Part shown: in pieces, positions 1 to 6,676 of the stretch | Numbering within the stretch: the first letter of the stretch is position 1 | Layout of the letters: the number at the start of each line of letters is the position of its first letter | Source: Promethearchaeota archaeon | GTDB taxonomy: Archaea > Asgardarchaeota > Lokiarchaeia > Sigynarchaeales > SOKP01 | Direction of reading: 5' to 3' | NCBI GenBank assembly: GCA_016839845.1 | Contig: JAEOTL010000280.1 | Location: 1 to 6,676 of the forward strand | DNA length: 6,676 bases | Notes under the pieces: generated by a model | What the model was told of the DNA's origin: nothing | Databases searched by the model: none | What the model saw: the letters and a program-made list of their open reading frames with translations, nothing else | Program-made: the position numbers and the translations under genes

Positions 1-1454
1 TAATGATAATACCCTATTCCACAAATGCCGATCGAAATTCCTGCAGGGATGACGGTACCTAATCCATCCCCCAGACTCCAGTCAATAAGTTGATCTCCAG
101 CCCAAACTGAAGTTGTGTATTTTGAAACGTTTGAATATCCTGCTCTTGTAAAAAATACAATTTCGCTTTGCTTCTCCATTTCTTGAACTGCTTCCAAATT
201 AACTTGGGCAAAAATAACAGGATATTTATTATGGAATGTTTCAGGACTTTCTTCAGAATGCAATACTGAATCAACTGGTAAATATTCTCCATAATCAGCC
301 ATCCAGCCGGATAATCCAATATTTATCATGTTTTCTTTTATAATCTCTTTAAACCACTTGATTGTATCAGGATTTGAAAGATCAAGAAGTGCTTTTTCTC
401 CACTATCAGTAATAATTTTGTAATGGTTTCCGTTTTTGTTTTTTACGCATAATCCCTTTTTAATAGCATCCTCATATTGTTCAACACCTTTGGCCAACAT
501 AGAGTTATTATACCCGAGAAATTTTATTCCTTTTTGATTTAATTGTTTTATAAAAGAGGGTAAATCCGGGTATAATTCTTCATCATATTTCCAATTCCAT
601 ATTAATCGTTTTTGTTGGCCTTGCATATGAATCCCTTGCCAGTCTTGGCACCAGACTGCTACGACTTTAACACCGCCTTCCAAGCATACATTAATCTTTT
701 GTTCTACGATTTCATGACCACCCTGAATTCCAAGCCATACACCATCATAAACCCAATCAGGTAGAACTGGTTGTTTTCCTAGTAAATTTGTTAAGTTACT
801 TACTGTCTCGAGAGTAGTATTAAATTTCCCTATTATAATTTCGTCAGGAATACTCCAAATATATAACTCATGATATTTCTTATTTGTAAAATTAAATTTC
901 GCATAACTTGTACTTGTACAGTGGCAATAGTAATTCTCAGATGAGACAAAAGTCGGTTGAGGATGATACGTGCTATACCAGTACCCTGTAATTGGAGGAT
1001 CACCCCTTCCAACTCCTTGTTCTTCAACAAACAGAGGGACTTCTTTTCCTCTAAAATTCACTTCAGAGAACTGTTCACCTAACCCAAATATCGCTTCATC
1101 TTCGGTAGCTTGAATTCTGATCCAAAATCTATTTATTTCAGGATAAGAACAATAAAAATTTAATTTTAATGTATCATCTTCTATTAGGATAACAACTTTA
1201 AGCTTTTCTACTTCCGTATTTTTGAATTCTAACTCTATTTCATTTTCTCCATTAATTACTATCTCAAATCTCTGTAAGGGAATTTTTATGATTATTTTCT
1301 CTCTAATTTTAAATTTTCCATAATGCATTTTGTATTTAGCTTTTCCTTTACCAATTGTAAAACACGGATCTTTTTGATTGTGTTTTAGAAATGGATAATC
1401 CTTAAAATAAATTGTAAATCCATCACCAAGTTCGTCATACTGTAATCTTAACAT
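1..1454 (-). CDS. Sulfoquinovosidase, GH31 family (3' end cut by window edge)
   Basis: This retaining alpha-glycosidase should release sulfoquinovose (6-deoxy-6-sulfoglucose) from sulfoquinovosyl glycerol or sulfolipid. Seen: 484 codons are open from ATG at 1454 to the edge; E. coli YihQ has about 678 residues, so roughly the last 190 are missing. An N-terminal beta domain (about 1-225) contains GLGEQFS (124-130) and QGVGR (146-150), followed by the catalytic barrel. From recalled YihQ numbering, the equivalents are Q262=Q244, Q288=Q270, R301=R283, W304=W286 (sulfonate and sugar contacts), nucleophile D405=D387 in GWMADYGEYLP, and acid/base D472=D454 in WAGDQ. Every spacing is identical. The C-terminal sulfonate-contacting Tyr (Y508) would fall outside the window. 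No signal peptide is visible, so the enzyme is probably cytoplasmic. It lies 18 nt after the isomerase stop, with AGGTAAA upstream as a weak ribosome site. General alpha-glucosidase or xylosidase is unlikely given the QQRW set. Confidence 0.9.
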   Translation of the reverse strand, partial: MLRLQYDELGDGFTIYFKDYPFLKHNQKDPCFTIGKGKAKYKMHYGKFKIREKIIIKIPLQRFEIVINGENEIELEFKNTEVEKLKVVILIEDDTLKLNFYCSYPEINRFWIRIQATEDEAIFGLGEQFSEVNFRGKEVPLFVEEQGVGRGDPPITGYWYSTYHPQPTFVSSENYYCHCTSTSYAKFNFTNKKYHELYIWSIPDEIIIGKFNTTLETVSNLTNLLGKQPVLPDWVYDGVWLGIQGGHEIVEQKINVCLEGGVKVVAVWCQDWQGIHMQGQQKRLIWNWKYDEELYPDLPSFIKQLNQKGIKFLGYNNSMLAKGVEQYEDAIKKGLCVKNKNGNHYKIITDSGEKALLDLSNPDTIKWFKEIIKENMINIGLSGWMADYGEYLPVDSVLHSEESPETFHNKYPVIFAQVNLEAVQEMEKQSEIVFFTRAGYSNVSKYTTSVWAGDQLIDWSLGDGLGTVIPAGISIGICGIGYYH

Positions 1455-1472
1455 CAATTTACCTATAGCTTT

Positions 1473-2798
1473 TTATTTAATTACTTTCCAACCTTTAATT
1501 TTAGCAAATATTTCTAATGGTTGTGTAAAAACATCATATACTACAGAAATATGGTGTGCTATTCCATTATTTATTATTTTCATTAAAACATCTTTTACGT
1601 GATTTTCAAAAATCACTTTAGCATAAGTACCTTTTAGTTCTTTTTCCATAGGAATTATCTTTCCCTTCTGTAAAAAGAGACGATACTCTCCAGGAGCGTA
1701 ATCAATTCTTAACAAAGAAACCAGTCCAGATTTCATAACGAAATCTGCTGTCACTCCTTTCCCTCCGGCAAAATAAGTGTCTAATGAACGGTTACATTTT
1801 CCATCCCAAAGATTACAAGGAGCTACTCCACAGTGCCATAATAAGGCAAAATTATGCTTAAGATCTATTTGAGAAAAATCTGCTAAATAAGGAGTTTCTG
1901 CTCCGATAGCCGCATGGGCTAACATAGAAAGACTTCCGAGTATATCTCCTTCACAAGTTAATATTTTTCCTTCTGATTGTAATATTGACATTGCAGCACA
2001 GGGAGCAATGCCAAAATCGGCAGCAAATTCCGGCCAACATCTTATAGTTAAAGCATCTAAATGATTCAATTCCATAAATTTGTCAAATTTGCTTGTAAGT
2101 TCTGCAACTTTAAATAGTTGTTGTTCAGATATTTCAGATACATCAAAAACGTTTTTAACTTGTGTTATTCTTTCCTTAATTTTATCTAAGTCAACTTCAA
2201 AGTTATAGATTTCACTTAATTCGAAATGTTCAATTAGAACTCCAAGTTCTTTATACAAATCCAGTTCGTCAATATCTAGATTAAAAAATCCCTTCGCCCT
2301 ATAACCCAAAATCCCTATTTTTCTTGTCGCGAATGCCTTAATTATTCGTAATGCATCTAACCAATCTTCATCTACATCGCTTCCAATTACAACTTGATAA
2401 TTTTTTACTCCCGCTTTATACAAGTTACTGGAATTCAGATTGATCCCACAGATAGAGTTGAGTCTAATTTTGCCTCCATCGTAAGGTAATTCCTCTAAAC
2501 CCCATAATAAAATTGGCTTTTGAATTATTTTATTTAATTCTAAAATCAAATTTCCCAATGCGAAAGTTCCACTTATACAAATTATCCCATCAATATTTTT
2601 AGCTTTAAATTCCTGAGCTGTTGTTATGACATCTTCAATTTCAATTATAAGCTCTGGCTGAATTTCCCAATCAACATTTTCAATCACTTCTAAGTTAGAT
2701 TGAATCTTTTCAAAAATACCTCTTGCCGCATTATAATCAAAAGTTTTTCTTGCTAAGCATACAACTCCAATCTTAATTTTCACTTTCAATGTTTTCAC
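1473..2798 (-). CDS. L-fucose isomerase-fold sugar isomerase, probable sulfoquinovose isomerase
   Basis: This 441-residue aldose-ketose isomerase is of the FucI/AraA-like fold (COG2407 type). Seen: a Rossmann-like N-terminal half (IGVVCLARKTFD near 10-21; an internal IGILGYRAKGFF at 161-172), then the metal site. CEGDILGSL (282-290) gives E283, ADFSQID (306-312) gives D307, WHCG (321-324) follows, and HH at 415-416 near the C-terminus should supply the histidine. The 24-residue E-to-D gap matches E337/D361 of E. coli FucI as I recall it. From memory, SQ isomerases of the sulfo-transaldolase and sulfo-transketolase pathways (SftI/SqvD, SqwD) belong to this superfamily, whereas YihS does not. 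Because the sulfoquinovosidase follows by 18 nt, SQ to sulfofructose is the inferred reaction; fucose, arabinose or another sugar remains possible. The chosen start is GTG at 2798: an in-frame TAA lies two codons upstream and the ATG at 2800 is out of frame. TTG (codon 4) and GTG (codon 6) are alternatives. Confidence 0.78.
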   Translation of the reverse strand: MKTLKVKIKIGVVCLARKTFDYNAARGIFEKIQSNLEVIENVDWEIQPELIIEIEDVITTAQEFKAKNIDGIICISGTFALGNLILELNKIIQKPILLWGLEELPYDGGKIRLNSICGINLNSSNLYKAGVKNYQVVIGSDVDEDWLDALRIIKAFATRKIGILGYRAKGFFNLDIDELDLYKELGVLIEHFELSEIYNFEVDLDKIKERITQVKNVFDVSEISEQQLFKVAELTSKFDKFMELNHLDALTIRCWPEFAADFGIAPCAAMSILQSEGKILTCEGDILGSLSMLAHAAIGAETPYLADFSQIDLKHNFALLWHCGVAPCNLWDGKCNRSLDTYFAGGKGVTADFVMKSGLVSLLRIDYAPGEYRLFLQKGKIIPMEKELKGTYAKVIFENHVKDVLMKIINNGIAHHISVVYDVFTQPLEIFAKIKGWKVIK

Positions 2799-2840
2799 AT
2801 TTTATATTTATTTTAAAAATTGAAATAATTGATGTTTCTA

Positions 2841-2854
2841 AATTATTTTTAAAA
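2841..2854 (-). promoter_or_regulatory. Possible TATA element for the isomerase-glycosidase operon
   Basis: The minus strand reads TTTTAAAAATAATT, giving a start near 2820-2825 and a leader of about 25 nt before GTG at 2798. A second candidate (TTTAAAAT at 2810-2817) would start transcription inside the annotated N-terminus, favouring a later start codon. The region is so AT-rich that both are weak calls. Confidence 0.25.
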
Positions 2855-2882
2855 CAAAAAATAAACCTTTTGAAAAAACTGA

Positions 2883-2897
2883 TTTCCGCACTGGAAA
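2883..2897. promoter_or_regulatory. Inverted repeat TTTCC-N5-GGAAA, possible operator
   Basis: Two perfect 5-nt arms flank GCACT, in an otherwise AT-rich spacer upstream of the isomerase operon and about 30 nt beyond its better TATA candidate. The arms are short, so chance is possible. It does not match the palindrome at 4532-4547. Confidence 0.2.
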
Positions 2898-2946
2898 ATT
2901 GAGCTTTCTCATTTATTTCATCTTAAACCAAAGTTATTTCTAATAT

Positions 2947-2966
2947 AAAATAAAAAAAGAAAAAAA
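2947..2966 (-). terminator. T-tract terminator after the transporter gene
   Basis: On the minus strand, about 11 nt after the transporter stop, the sequence reads as two T7-like runs separated by single bases and followed by more T. Such T-rich tracts without a hairpin are typical archaeal terminators. It separates the transporter transcript from the isomerase operon. Confidence 0.5.
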
Positions 2967-2977
2967 GGTTAAAAATA

Positions 2978-4450
2978 TTAAAATCCGAGTTCTTTCATCT
3001 TAGCTTTGTTACTTAATACCCTTTCTTGAGTTAGGGGGAAAAACTTCCACATAATTAGGATACCCACTAGTAAAACTAATGCTGGAATGACACCTTGTAT
3101 AAGGCGGATACCTATAAGTACTAAATTCATATCACCACCTGCAAGTGTAACTGCGTTTAACATTTCCGCATAAGTATCATTACCTGCTATAAACCCAGTG
3201 ATATCGTGAACACCCGCAAAAATAGTCTCGTCAATAAATGCAACAAATCGAAGAAGCATTGCAGAAATTCCGAAGAGAATCCCTTTTTGATTTTTCCCCA
3301 TCTTAACAATAACATCCTCATTTACACTTGGACTGATTATAGTGTATATGTATGAGTTTAAGCCTCCCTGAGCGAGACCGAGAATGAATGCCATGATTAT
3401 GATATCACTTAAGCCCTGAAAGAATGTCAATGGAAATGTCGCAGCACATGATAAGAGCCCCGCAACCACGAACGCTTTCTTATTATTGTTTATTTTCCTA
3501 ATGTATCTGAGCCATATAGGAATAGATATCAAAGTACCTACGAGATTTAAACCTAAAATAATAAGAAACATATCACCACTAACCTGTAAGACAAAAGTTG
3601 TTGTATATAACATGTTTGTTATGACAAGGGCTATCCATATTCCATTACATACATTAAATATAATCCATACCACGTAACTTTTCGTTGTTATAGCTTCTTT
3701 AAGGACTTTTAAGAATTTCGCTCGCTTCACAGAATCAGGTGAATAATACTTATCAATCATTATTTTATCCTCACGGTTACCAGGAAGAGACAAAATAGCG
3801 AAAAAAAGAGCTATTACGGCGAGTATCACTGCCATCATGCTATAACTGGCAAAGGCATCGCCAGGTATCATATCAGTAAAAAGAGGAGGTAATAACATCC
3901 CAAGGAGAATAGCTAAGATGTCCATAGGGGCATAATATTTTGAGAATCTATTACGCTCGTGCTCTGTCCGAAATTTTTCCATTTGAATTGCCTTGAAGTT
4001 AACACCCACTAGCGTGCCAAAGGTATCAATTAAAACCAATGATAATAATAGCCACCCAAAAGCAGGCAAAATATAGGGATCTAAAAGGCTACCAAAGCTA
4101 TCTTTTGGTAGATTTGGGGCTGAAAAGAGAAGAACGACAGATAAGACCCAAGGGACGATGCCTATGACGATCCAAGGAAATCGTCTTCCCCATTTTCTCG
4201 TGAATCTCAAATTCCGATCGATTAAAAAACCAATAATAGGGTCATTAAGTCCGTTATATATCAGAAAGATAAACATGGCGATAGCGATATATGTTGCATT
4301 TAATCCAACAACGGCTTCATAATAGAAAAGCGTAAACCCTTGAATAGCACCTATTAATGTAGCGCAAAGTAGACCGAAAGCATTGGAAAGAAAGGTCCAT
4401 TTTGAATGTCTTGTTTCAAGAGATTCAGTATAATTAATAGTTTCATTCAT
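2978..4450 (-). CDS. GPH-family (MelB/YihO-like) sugar:cation symporter, probable SQ or SQ-glycoside importer
   Basis: This is a 490-residue inner-membrane secondary transporter of the glycoside-pentoside-hexuronide branch of the major facilitator superfamily, with about 12 hydrophobic segments. Seen: the family signature NDPIIGFLIDR at 69-79 and RKWGRRFPWI at 85-94 in the loop after TM2. MelB cation-site residues N58 and D59 correspond to N69 and D70, but the MelB D55 position is N66, which would fit proton rather than sodium coupling (inference). E. coli YihO and YihP, tied to SQ-glycoside and SQ uptake, are GPH members, so the neighbouring sulfoquinovosidase and isomerase suggest SQ or SQ-glycerol as substrate. 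Substrate cannot be read from sequence. ATG at 4450 is preferred over TTG at 4459 because a TTTAAATA box sits at 4469-4476, placing transcription start near the ATG. It is separated from the isomerase by 179 nt and a T-tract, so probably a separate transcript in the same regulon. Confidence 0.83.
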   Translation of the reverse strand: MNETINYTESLETRHSKWTFLSNAFGLLCATLIGAIQGFTLFYYEAVVGLNATYIAIAMFIFLIYNGLNDPIIGFLIDRNLRFTRKWGRRFPWIVIGIVPWVLSVVLLFSAPNLPKDSFGSLLDPYILPAFGWLLLSLVLIDTFGTLVGVNFKAIQMEKFRTEHERNRFSKYYAPMDILAILLGMLLPPLFTDMIPGDAFASYSMMAVILAVIALFFAILSLPGNREDKIMIDKYYSPDSVKRAKFLKVLKEAITTKSYVVWIIFNVCNGIWIALVITNMLYTTTFVLQVSGDMFLIILGLNLVGTLISIPIWLRYIRKINNNKKAFVVAGLLSCAATFPLTFFQGLSDIIIMAFILGLAQGGLNSYIYTIISPSVNEDVIVKMGKNQKGILFGISAMLLRFVAFIDETIFAGVHDITGFIAGNDTYAEMLNAVTLAGGDMNLVLIGIRLIQGVIPALVLLVGILIMWKFFPLTQERVLSNKAKMKELGF

Positions 4451-4468
4451 TTTAATCAAATTTTTTTT

Positions 4469-4620: not shown

Positions 4621-5787
4621 ATGGTGGAAAAACGAGAAATCGAATCAGCATTTTTAGAAATGTTGAAAGATCAAGAGAAAAAAGCACCGAATGACAAAAT
4701 TTATGAGAAAGATATGGAAACTATTGGGGAACTACACGTCCAATGGAAACTACCTTTTAAAATTCGAGGATCTCAAATCTTTAAGAAAGATTCAATATCT
4801 TACAAGTTCGGAGAAAATTTAGAGAACCCCGATATTTCTTTGGTAATCAGGAATAAAGAATTAGCACTTCGATTCTTAAGAGGGGAAATCTTTGATTTTG
4901 ATTACGGTCCGGGTTATAAGGGAGATTTCAAAGTATATTACACAGATTCATGGAAGGTGATCGAAACAGAAACAGGAAAAAAGAACGTAAGAATTAATAA
5001 GCCTTTTATAACCATTCGATTTAATAAAGAGAGGGAATATCATCCTTATATGGTATCAAAATTACCCATTTTTCGAAAATTGGTGGCAACACGAATGTCT
5101 GAGGAGGATATTGGATATTTCATCCCAATCAATCAGTCGCTTGGAACGTATGAAAACCAAGTTATACCGTATGTAGTCTTTAAACACTTCATTGATAAAG
5201 CGAGCAACATCGTCATTTTGAATAAATGTGGCTGTAGAGTCAGTAAAAACTGTCAACATCACGATCATTCGATAGGATGCCTAAACATGGGCGATGACAC
5301 ATTGAATTTGCCGATTGATAAAGAAAGAAAGCACGTTGCAACAAAGGAAGAAGCCTTGGAACTTGTGAAAAAGGCTATTGATGATGGTTTGATTCCACTA
5401 CTTGGAAGAGCCATGGATGAGGCTGTAGGGGCTGGTATTGAAGATACAGGAAAATTTATGTCTGCATGTTTTTGTTGTCCTTGCTGCTGTGTCGATATTC
5501 CAATTCTGAAACATGCCACAAATGAGCTTAAATTTATAAAAAAAATCGAAGGGCTTAATGTGGTGGTTGATGACGACGCTTGTATTGGATGTGAAGATTG
5601 TATTGACGCTTGCGTTTGGAATGGGAATGAAATGATAGAAGGTATAGCACATATTACGGACCGATGTCTAGGTTGTGGAAGGTGTGTGGAAGCTTGCCCT
5701 AGCGATGCAATCTCTATAACTTTCAATGACTCAAGTAATATTGATGCGTTAATTAAAGAATTAAATGCCCATGTTACAGTAGACTAA
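4621..5787 (+). CDS. SCP2-like domain fused to cysteine-rich di-[4Fe-4S] ferredoxin-type protein, function unknown
   Basis: I cannot name this 388-residue protein. Seen, in order: a region at about 30-135 resembling a sterol-carrier SCP2 fold (ENPDISLVIRNKELALRFLRG, 68-88, then YKGDFKVYY, 99-107); a middle domain with IPINQSLGTYENQ (168-180) and the cysteine set C203, C205, C211, C220 (GCLNMG); a cluster CFCCPCCC at 283-290 with six cysteines in eight residues; and a C-terminal pair of ferredoxin motifs, C321-x2-C324-x2-C327-x3-C331 and C349-x2-C352-x2-C355-x3-C359-P. The last two should bind two [4Fe-4S] clusters; the other cysteines could hold another cluster or metal. It has no membrane segment or signal peptide, so it is probably a cytoplasmic electron-transfer protein, perhaps with a lipophilic ligand in the SCP2 part. 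It is divergent from the SQ transporter, which may mean shared control. A homologue lies downstream in reverse orientation. TTTAAATA at 4561-4568 supports the ATG at 4621. Confidence 0.8.
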   Translation: MVEKREIESAFLEMLKDQEKKAPNDKIYEKDMETIGELHVQWKLPFKIRGSQIFKKDSISYKFGENLENPDISLVIRNKELALRFLRGEIFDFDYGPGYKGDFKVYYTDSWKVIETETGKKNVRINKPFITIRFNKEREYHPYMVSKLPIFRKLVATRMSEEDIGYFIPINQSLGTYENQVIPYVVFKHFIDKASNIVILNKCGCRVSKNCQHHDHSIGCLNMGDDTLNLPIDKERKHVATKEEALELVKKAIDDGLIPLLGRAMDEAVGAGIEDTGKFMSACFCCPCCCVDIPILKHATNELKFIKKIEGLNVVVDDDACIGCEDCIDACVWNGNEMIEGIAHITDRCLGCGRCVEACPSDAISITFNDSSNIDALIKELNAHVTVD

Positions 5788-5799
5788 TCTAGGATTAGT
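5783..5799. repeat. Short hairpin over the stop codon of the SCP2-ferredoxin gene
   Basis: ACTAATC-TAG-GATTAGT forms a 7-bp stem with a 3-nt loop and includes the TAA stop (5785-5787). It stands 22 nt before the T-tract at 5822-5832, too far for a classical bacterial intrinsic terminator, but could stabilise the mRNA 3' end. Confidence 0.3.
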
Positions 5800-5821
5800 T
5801 AAAACAACTGATAAGACATAA

Positions 5822-5832
5822 TTTTTTTTTTT
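5822..5832 (+). terminator. T11 tract, terminator for the SCP2-ferredoxin gene
   Basis: Eleven consecutive T residues lie 34 nt after the stop codon. They are followed at 5832-5850 by a 6-bp inverted repeat (TAAACT-N7-AGTTTA). The T-run is in the right orientation to end the plus-strand transcript. No comparable tract is seen for the opposing minus-strand gene, apart from AAAA at 5801-5804 on this strand. Confidence 0.5.
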
Positions 5833-5878
5833 AAACTCCTCTAAAGTTTATAGTGGGCTGCTCTTGCTTGTCATCCTT

Positions 5879-6676
5879 CTAAGTGACGTCAACGTGGGAT
5901 TCTATGCGAGCTATCATTCTATCCACTCCACCATCCTCAATGTTAATAGTTATCGCTCCAGTCGGGCAAACCCTTTCACACCTGCCACAGCCTTTGCAGC
6001 GATCCTTGCCCTCCCGGTCTATCACGGCTTTGTTGTCAATGACCTCCATTCCACCGTATATACACACCTCTAGACATTCTTGTTCGCATCCCTTACAAAG
6101 ATCCGAATTAACAGTGACGGACACACCCTCCATCTTTTTATGCCACCCCTTCAGATACTTCGGTGAATCCTTACCACTCGCCTCGACACAGCAACAAGGG
6201 CAACAAAAGCAGATGTGCATCAGATCGCCCTGCTCAGGCAGTGCCCTATAGACGATCGTATCGGCTTTGACTCTACCCAGAGAAGGCAGGAGACCTGCTG
6301 CAACAGCCTTTCGTGATCGTTCCAATGCCTCTTCTTTAGTACCGATCCTTCCAAAAGTATTCATCCTCAGGGCTCCCTTACCCAGGGCCATGCAACCGAT
6401 GGATGGGTCATAATTCTTGCAATTGGCCATCGATCGACAGGGACACATAGAGAAGATATAGACGTCACTTGCCTTGTTTATGAAGTATTCGAGAACTGCG
6501 AGAGGTATCGATTGGTTCTCGTACGTGCCCAATGACTCATTGATTGGAATCCGAACGTCGTTCGAGTTCTCGGGATCTGTGGTTCGCACCATGACTGGTC
6601 TAAAAATGGGAATTCTCAGTAGGCGAGAAGACAATCTTCTTTGCTTGGGGGAGTCATTATCTTTTGTAGTACTCAA
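5879..6676 (-). CDS. Cysteine-rich di-[4Fe-4S] ferredoxin-type protein, homologue of the 4621-5787 product (5' end probably cut)
   Basis: The 265 visible residues align with about residue 125 to the end of the plus-strand neighbour: IPINESLGTYENQ (43-55), CPCR (78-81) with C86 and GCMALG (94-99), CFCCPCCCV (156-164), then two ferredoxin motifs. The first is spaced C194-x2-C197-x3-C201-x3-C205, one residue longer than standard; the second is classical (C227, C230, C233, C237-P). A cytoplasmic electron-transfer role is inferred; the specific function is unknown. The frame is still open at the last base, where TTG could be a start. The only early ATG (codon 29) would cut into the conserved IPIFR region, so the true start is TTG at 6676 or, more likely, outside the window. 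An SCP2 domain upstream is therefore possible. Codon use differs from the neighbours: CTG occurs eight times (about once in the homologue) and AAG outnumbers AAA about 11 to 6. This suggests a separate origin or a donor with higher GC. Confidence 0.8.
   Translation of the reverse strand: MSTTKDNDSPKQRRLSSRLLRIPIFRPVMVRTTDPENSNDVRIPINESLGTYENQSIPLAVLEYFINKASDVYIFSMCPCRSMANCKNYDPSIGCMALGKGALRMNTFGRIGTKEEALERSRKAVAAGLLPSLGRVKADTIVYRALPEQGDLMHICFCCPCCCVEASGKDSPKYLKGWHKKMEGVSVTVNSDLCKGCEQECLEVCIYGGMEVIDNKAVIDREGKDRCKGCGRCERVCPTGAITINIEDGGVDRMIARIESHVDVT

What the first reader, a model, noticed from the sequence alone, without database searches (positions are those of the whole stretch)
1..4450. 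Sulfoquinovose uptake and processing cluster in a probable archaeon
A GH31 enzyme with the full sulfoquinovosidase signature, a fucose-isomerase-fold isomerase and a GPH symporter sit on one strand. Established knowledge: GPH transporters and GH31 SQases occur together in bacterial SQ operons, and isomerases of this fold act in sulfo-TAL and sulfo-TK pathways. The characterised SQ pathways I know are bacterial, so an archaeal version would extend sulfolipid-sugar turnover to archaea, possibly as scavengers of plant or algal debris in sediment.
Basis: partly seen in the sequence, partly recalled or inferred. Interest (0 to 1): 0.85.

Follow-up and report, generated by a model that had tools for sequence, protein, structure and literature searches.

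The report
Sulfosugar-degradation genes in Lokiarchaeia
A DNA fragment from a Lokiarchaeia-type archaeon (an Asgard, the group closest to eukaryotes) carries two adjacent genes for breaking down the plant and algal sulfonated sugar sulfoquinovose, and related genomes carry the next enzyme of the pathway, a job so far characterised only in bacteria.

Summary
In detail: a GH31 gene (3..1457, cut by the contig end), a fucose/arabinose-isomerase-fold isomerase (1473..2798) and a GPH-type transporter (2978..4459) lie on the minus strand. The GH31 matches solved sulfoquinovosidases far better than other GH31s and has the Gln/Gln/Arg/Trp sulfonate-site residues and the catalytic acids. The fifth signature residue lies beyond the contig end and is Phe, not Tyr, in the nearest relatives. 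The contig is Asgard (Promethearchaeota). Of 24 Asgard genomes with this isomerase, 21 hold the GH31 and 18 a transaldolase that groups with the structurally solved Bacillus sulfofructose transaldolase, apart from ordinary transaldolases; against 7 and 2 of 203 genomes without it. The best reading is a sulfo-transaldolase sulfoglycolysis pathway in Lokiarchaeia. The transaldolase is not in the window; no activity has been measured. The transporter is the weak part: its orthologues in three relatives sit on contigs other than the isomerase's, with iron-sulfur proteins. The fate of sulfolactaldehyde varies: a reductase-like gene in some genomes, possibly a tungsten aldehyde:ferredoxin oxidoreductase in others. 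A 2026 review states that no archaeal sulfoquinovose pathway has been characterised.

The parts
3..1457 (-). GH31 sulfoquinovosidase-like gene, 485 codons readable, 3' part beyond the contig end; the likely start is the ATG at 1454 next to the TTG at 1457
   Evidence: NF007746 540.8 bits on a truncated read, cut-off 553; YihQ 5aed 422 bits, next GH31 type 73 bits
597..608 (-). codons of the R301 (606-608) and W304 (597-599) equivalents, sulfonate-pocket residues of YihQ (roles recalled)
93..296 (-). codons of the catalytic D405 (294-296) and D472 (93-95) equivalents, and of E408 (285-287)
1473..2798 (-). sugar isomerase of the L-arabinose/L-fucose isomerase fold, SftI/SqvD-like; its stop is 18 bp before the GH31 ATG
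1878..1952 (-). codons of E283 (1950-1952) and D307 (1878-1880), 24 residues apart as recalled for E337/D361 of L-fucose isomerase; putative metal ligands (recalled, not mapped structurally)
2941..2977 (-). T-rich tract directly after the GPH stop; possible archaeal terminator that would separate GPH from isomerase-GH31 (inference)
2978..4459 (-). GPH/MFS_2-type transporter; an SQ role is not supported by relatives
   Evidence: (TIGR00792 98 bits, cut-off 231)
4621..5787 (+). 4Fe-4S protein FD1, divergent from GPH; flanking, probably not part of the SQ system
5879..6676 (-). second 4Fe-4S protein FD2 of the same family, cut by the contig end; flanking

Best explanation
The isomerase-GH31 pair is the entry part of a sulfo-transaldolase (sulfo-TAL) sulfoglycolysis pathway in a Lokiarchaeia-type archaeon. 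The GH31 releases sulfoquinovose (SQ) from alpha-sulfoquinovosides such as sulfoquinovosyl glycerol. The isomerase turns SQ into 6-deoxy-6-sulfofructose. A sulfofructose transaldolase, seen in relatives but not in this window, moves the glycerone unit to glyceraldehyde-3-phosphate, giving fructose-6-phosphate for central metabolism and sulfolactaldehyde. Sulfolactaldehyde is then disposed of as dihydroxypropanesulfonate or sulfolactate, depending on lineage. Shown by sequence: families, active-site residues, linkage, co-occurrence, Asgard origin. Inferred: substrates, direction, the presence of the transaldolase in this organism, import and export.
For: GH31: matches YihQ (422 bits), E. rectale SftG 6pnr (396) and A. 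tumefaciens SQase 5ohy (308); the next GH31 scores 73; QQRW plus DED residues. Isomerase: NF048012 'sulfoquinovose isomerase' is its only NCBIfam hit at E<=0.001; bacterial relatives sit in clusters whose representatives are split transketolase, RpiB, TauE, Fe-ADH and ABC genes, i.e. sulfo-TK type. Transaldolase: L001 TAL 300 bits to BmSF-TAL against 167 to the next; one clade with BmSF-TAL, 100/100, apart from 8 generic transaldolases; 14 clade-specific residues including R138W, and the Schiff-base lysine K89 in 21 of 21 rows. Co-occurrence in 227 genomes of the phylum: isomerase 24; of these 18 have SF-TAL and 21 the GH31, against 2 and 7 of the 203 others. Origin.
Against: The transaldolase is not in the window; in the three closest isomerase relatives (L001, L002, L089) it lies directly upstream of the isomerase, where the window has GPH. 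Six of 24 isomerase genomes show no SF-TAL, and 7 genomes have the GH31 without the isomerase. The isomerase is far below the SftI cut-off (239 of 700 bits). The Tyr508 position is Phe in the window's GH31 subclade. No SLA enzyme was recognised among the neighbours scanned in the window-type loci (not every ORF was scanned). The reductase-like gene of other lineages scores higher as tartronate semialdehyde reductase than as SLA reductase. GH31 and isomerase of the window have different nearest relatives (L004/L007 and L001). Nothing is measured.
Confidence: 0.78

Rival explanations
1. The genes handle a different sulfosugar or sulfonated glycoside (for example archaeal N-glycan SQ or sulfofucose) rather than plant or algal SQ. 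The chemistry would be the same, the substrate source different.
For: SQ and sulfofucose occur in archaeal glycoconjugates (passages of PMC12890257; PMC12421959). The GH31 pocket varies: R301 is Gln in 10 of the 18 rows of the main Asgard clade, and Y508 is Phe in the window's subclade.
Against: The window's own GH31 has R301 and W304. GH31 SQases are described as alpha-specific, while N-glycan SQ is beta-linked (PMC10755693 passages). E. coli and Agrobacterium SQases are inactive on alpha-sulfofucoside (PMC12421959 passage).
Confidence: 0.12
2. A non-sulfonated sugar pathway: the isomerase acts on fucose, arabinose or a similar sugar and the GH31 is an ordinary alpha-glycosidase.
For: Pfam gives only Fucose_iso_C, just under its cut-off, and GPH transporters are generic. 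The fold is that of L-arabinose and L-fucose isomerases.
Against: The GH31 scores about 350 bits better against YihQ than against the next GH31 type. SF-TAL co-occurs in 18 of 24 genomes. None of the five window ORFs is a kinase or aldolase.
Confidence: 0.06
3. The contig is bacterial, or a very recent bacterial insert in a mis-binned MAG.
For: The isomerase family is widespread in Spirochaetes and Clostridia, so the origin is probably an old transfer from bacteria. One FD1 relative at 52% is labelled Proteobacteria (P0196).
Against: Best named relatives of isomerase, GPH and FD1 are Promethearchaeota/Lokiarchaeota. 24 of 25 Asgard-set isomerases group together (SH-aLRT 87) and 18 of the 19 Asgard GH31s put into the tree form one clade (100).
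Confidence: 0.03

Closest known systems
Sulfo-TAL (sulfo-SFT) pathway of Bacillus megaterium/aryabhattai and Eubacterium rectale (SftG, SftI/SqvD, SftT/SqvA)
   Same: Same three enzyme types: GH31 SQase, fucose-isomerase-fold SQ isomerase, and in relatives an SF-TAL inside the clade of the solved BmSF-TAL
   Different: Asgard archaeon; isomerase far from the SftI equivalog (239 against 700 bits); no SF-TAL in the window; no member of the DUF4867/SftX cluster in the Asgard loci compared; SLA step varies
Sulfo-TK clusters of Spirochaetes and Clostridia
   Same: Same isomerase family (bacterial loci kept: 53-63% identity), often with a GH31
   Different: They carry split transketolase, RpiB, Fe-ADH, TauE and ABC importers (representatives); these clusters had no member in the 20 archaeal loci
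GH31 sulfoquinovosidases YihQ (5aed) and SftG of E. rectale (6pnr)
   Same: Overall sequence, catalytic acids; with YihQ also Q262/Q288/R301/W304
   Different: Tyr508 position is Phe in the window's relatives; truncated in the window
GH188 NAD+-dependent sulfoquinovosidases, reported in a small number of archaea (PMC10755693, passages)
   Same: Earlier sequence hint of SQ glycoside use in archaea
   Different: A different glycoside hydrolase family and mechanism; the passages seen report genes in archaea, not an archaeal pathway

Membership tests
GH31 sulfoquinovosidase | Closer to solved SQases than to other GH31s | tested here: met
   305-427 bits for the six YihQ-type chains (8r56 labelled only as GH31) against 73 for the next
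GH31 sulfoquinovosidase | Catalytic D405 and D472, and Q262/Q288/R301/W304 (roles of the latter recalled) | tested here: met
GH31 sulfoquinovosidase | Tyr508 of the sulfonate pocket (recalled) | tested here: inconclusive
   beyond the contig end; Phe in 7 of 7 other members of the window's subclade
GH31 sulfoquinovosidase | Hydrolysis of SQ glycosides | not testable with these tools
   needs an assay
SftI sulfoquinovose isomerase (NF048012 equivalog) | Score over the curated cut-off of 700 bits | tested here: not met
   239 bits; 8 relatives of the same family score 187-238. Not filed as SftI; it may still work like one
Arabinose/fucose isomerase-fold aldose-ketose isomerases | Fold | tested here: met
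Sulfo-TAL pathway | Sulfofructose transaldolase | tested here: inconclusive
   absent from the 6.7 kb window; present in 18 of 24 Asgard genomes with the isomerase
Sulfo-TAL pathway | SLA reductase or dehydrogenase | tested here: inconclusive
   none in the window; reductase-like gene between SF-TAL and isomerase in G017, G018, G020, G110, G161; AFOR orthologue in 5 of 24
GPH symporter (TIGR00792) | Score over cut-off 231.35 | tested here: not met
   98 bits; the broader Pfam MFS_2 is met
Asgard archaea | Nearest relatives and tree position | tested here: met

The most novel reading that the evidence does not exclude
Lokiarchaeia run a ferredoxin-coupled sulfo-TAL pathway: sulfolactaldehyde is oxidised to sulfolactate by a tungsten aldehyde:ferredoxin oxidoreductase, the sulfolactate is racemised by a nickel-pincer (LarA-like) isomerase and exported by an AEC-family carrier. 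The reduced ferredoxin feeds the electron economy of an Asgard archaeon, instead of the NAD(P)-linked SLA enzymes described in bacteria. Basis: the genes Fer4, AFOR, LarA-like and AEC stand in this order upstream of the isomerase in G013 and G016 (in G016 with a methyltransferase-like gene between AEC and isomerase), and Fer4-AFOR-LarA stand together in G144 and G011 too.
Probability: 0.2. Interest if true: 0.85.

Novelty: new member of a known kind. Interest (0 to 1): 0.65.

Why it matters
[quoted passage not shown] A sulfo-TAL gene set in roughly one in ten genomes of the Asgard phylum sample (24 of 227 with the isomerase) would bring the archaea nearest to eukaryotes into sulfolipid turnover, give a concrete plant or algal carbon source for Lokiarchaeia, and name enzymes that can be assayed now.

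Tried and rejected
Rejected: bacterial contig; ordinary fucose/arabinose pathway (and SF-TAL co-occurrence). Weakened: GPH as SQ importer. Led nowhere: own-genome search (no genome held); PDB sequence search with the isomerase (0 hits at E<=0.001); search for SF-TAL structure papers (0 papers). The sulfopyruvate/phosphonopyruvate-decarboxylase-like gene after the GH31 in L001 (below cut-offs) is not seen at that place in the related L089 locus and was not pursued. The SLA-reductase substrate site was not checked.

Literature: prior archaeal or Asgard SQ catabolism was sought (25 of 110 papers listed; 7; 0; 25; 0; 6). By title and abstract listing, none of the 7 and 6 papers is on SQ catabolism in Asgards (not opened for this). 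Papers were opened only as passages: PMC12890257, PMC13219744, PMC12330013, PMC13372026, PMC11659671, PMC9594981, PMC12965863, PMC10755693, PMC12421959. PMC11968277 was seen as passages and sections 4 and 5. Only open-licence PMC full texts are held, no preprints.
Full report
What is in the window. Five ORFs matter: on the minus strand a GH31 gene 3..1457 that runs off the window start, an isomerase 1473..2798 and a transporter 2978..4459; then a 4Fe-4S protein FD1 4621..5787 on the plus strand and a related FD2 5879..6676 on the minus strand, cut by the end. Isomerase stop and GH31 ATG are 18 bp apart, so these two are probably co-transcribed (inference). The transporter is followed by about 180 bp with a T-rich tract, which may end its transcript before the isomerase (inference). 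No tRNA was found.

GH31. The 485 readable residues match YihQ-type chains best: 8r56 427 bits (labelled only GH31), E. coli YihQ 5aed 422, 6pnr 396 and 5ohy 308, the last two named as SQases of E. rectale and A. tumefaciens in PMC11968277 section 5; the next GH31 scores 73 bits. NF007746 (YihQ model) gives 540.8 bits against a cut-off of 553 on the truncated read; full-length relatives pass it, e.g. 800 bits in G001. In YihQ numbering (roles of Q262, Q288, R301, W304, Y508 and D472 recalled; Asp405 is called catalytic in PMC11968277 section 5) the window has Q262, Q288, R301, W304, D405, E408 and D472; Y508 lies beyond the contig end. In the GH31 tree (quick method), 18 of the 19 Asgard rows put in form one clade (SH-aLRT 100); L070 falls outside. 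The window lies in an 8-row subclade (99) with L001, L002, L004, L005, L007, L089 and L108. All seven of these have R301 and Phe at 508. The other 10 rows of the Asgard clade have Gln at 301, as do many bacterial relatives. Eleven of the 29 phylum matches were not put in the tree.

Origin. Best named relatives of isomerase, FD1 and GPH are Promethearchaeota/Lokiarchaeota; most hits are unnamed, and one FD1 relative at 52% (P0196) is labelled Proteobacteria. In the isomerase tree (quick method, 85 rows), 24 of 25 Asgard-set rows group together (SH-aLRT 87, not starred); the exception, L067, is titled Bathyarchaeota though its genome (G018) appears in the phylum search of G001. The window's smallest starred set is L001, L002, L089 plus itself (100). 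Three proteins in the lists share a longest contig of 27,843 bases (P0009 isomerase, P0122 FD1, P0258 GPH) and two share 66,586 (P0031 isomerase, P0257 GPH), so the window's arrangement probably recurs. This rests on contig length alone, and a 2,099-base coincidence (P0023, P0307) shows that short lengths can match by chance.

The missing step found in relatives. Directly upstream of the isomerase in L001, L002, L004, L006, L007, L010, L055 (with a reductase between) and L089 lies a roughly 222-aa transaldolase-family gene. L001's copy hits BmSF-TAL (8bc3, 8bc4, 8bc2) at 296-300 bits and the next structure, 1vpx, at 167. In a 29-row tree, 17 Asgard genes, three bacterial neighbours and BmSF-TAL form one clade (100/100) apart from six generic Asgard transaldolases and two PDB ones. 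The tool warned of long branches meeting at one generic row, L094. Fourteen positions are invariant in the 21 SF-TAL rows and differ in all 8 generic rows, among them W138 for R; K89 is present in all 21, and in the generic rows too. PMC12890257 (passage) names Lys89 as the Schiff-base residue.

Co-occurrence. Among 227 genomes of the phylum of G001: isomerase in 24 at E<=1e-60; SF-TAL in 20, all at 401.9 bits or more, the next match being 201 (78 genomes have some transaldolase match at E<=1e-30); GH31 in 28 at E<=1e-100, with none in the 14 control genomes of the tool. With isomerase: 18 of 24 have SF-TAL, 21 of 24 the GH31. Without: 2 of 203 (G120, G160) and 7 of 203. Fisher p is 1e-19 and 1e-20; genomes are related, so these p-values overstate. 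Missing SF-TAL: G003, G005, G012, G014, G019, G114. Missing GH31: G015, G020, G114. Completeness of the MAGs is not given. Isomerase and GH31 are neighbours in 15 of 24 loci (one, L006, with an LRR gene between); of the other nine, five end within 0.35 kb downstream of the isomerase (L013, L033, L071, L091, L092) and four have another gene there (L016, L025, L067, L090).

Fate of sulfolactaldehyde. A reductase-like gene of the HIBADH/SLA-reductase superfamily lies between SF-TAL and isomerase in G017, G018, G020, G110 and G161. Three Asgard members score 152-173 bits to the SLA reductase model NF012005 (cut-off 348) but 183-211 to tartronate semialdehyde reductase models, also below cut-off, so the substrate is open. 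G013 and G016 instead have Fer4, AFOR, LarA-like and AEC genes in this order upstream of the isomerase, in G016 with a methyltransferase-like gene between AEC and isomerase. AFOR's best structure is 1aor, 450 bits; the LarA-like protein of L033 passes NF052515 (462 against 400 bits). The AFOR orthologue is in 5 of 24 genomes at E<=1e-150, with Fer4 and LarA in G144 (same contig as the isomerase) and G011, and with Fer4 alone in G008. No sulfonate is proven as substrate; lactaldehyde/lactate is an equally formal reading of AFOR plus LarA. The review's main text holds no word beginning 'ferredoxin'.

The transporter. The GPH model is well under its cut-off (98 of 231 bits). Window-GPH orthologues of 78-83% identity exist in G001, G003 and G004, each on a contig other than the isomerase's. 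In G003 and G004 they are next to FD1 and FD2 homologues (59-86%), in G001 near a 42% family member. MAG contigs are fragments, so this weakens but does not exclude linkage. Different GPH paralogues lie on the isomerase contig in G001, G003, G004, G007 and G144 and in runs next to SF-TAL in L006 and L010. GPH carriers are therefore plausible importers in general, but this one is not shown to belong.

Novelty. [quoted passage not shown] PMC10755693 (passages) reported GH188 SQase genes in a small number of archaea, so an archaeal hint existed. Searches for Asgard SQ catabolism found nothing relevant by listing. The kind of system is known; its home is new.

Verdict. An archaeal sulfo-TAL gene set is well supported across Lokiarchaeia; the window holds two of its genes. 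Function is inferred from sequence only.

Noticed in passing
L003, L006, L008-L012, L055, L110, L111 (GH31 genes): R301 of the SQase sulfonate pocket is Gln in 10 of 18 rows of the main Asgard GH31 clade and in many bacterial homologues beside the same isomerase; the window's subclade has Arg. Substrate consequence unknown.
   Followed up: partly
L081 4510-16296; L084 6234-15081: Arrays of seven (L081) and six (L084) proteins of 437-480 aa, with 10-14 predicted membrane spans in L081, near AEC between SF-TAL and the isomerase end of the cluster in G008 and G009; two members scanned (L081:4510, L008:1277) had no Pfam match.
   Followed up: no
L103 7771-19471; window 4621-6676: A cysteine-rich 4Fe-4S protein family (FD1/FD2) with seven members in one Loki region, around the window-type GPH transporter.
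   Followed up: no
L082 11456-15105, L083 10969-14566, L104 5379-8929, L106 4952-8601: Conserved Fer4-AFOR-LarA three-gene module in four Loki genomes, inside the sulfosugar cluster in two of them.
   Followed up: partly
L090 584-6538: In G114 the isomerase and AEC gene are next to GlcF-like (CCG domain) and GlcD-like (FAD) genes, hinting at 2-hydroxy-acid oxidation.
   Followed up: no
L001 13430-14629: Phosphonopyruvate/sulfopyruvate decarboxylase-like gene next to the GH31 (TIGR03297 202 bits, TIGR03846 174 bits, both below cut-off).
   Followed up: no
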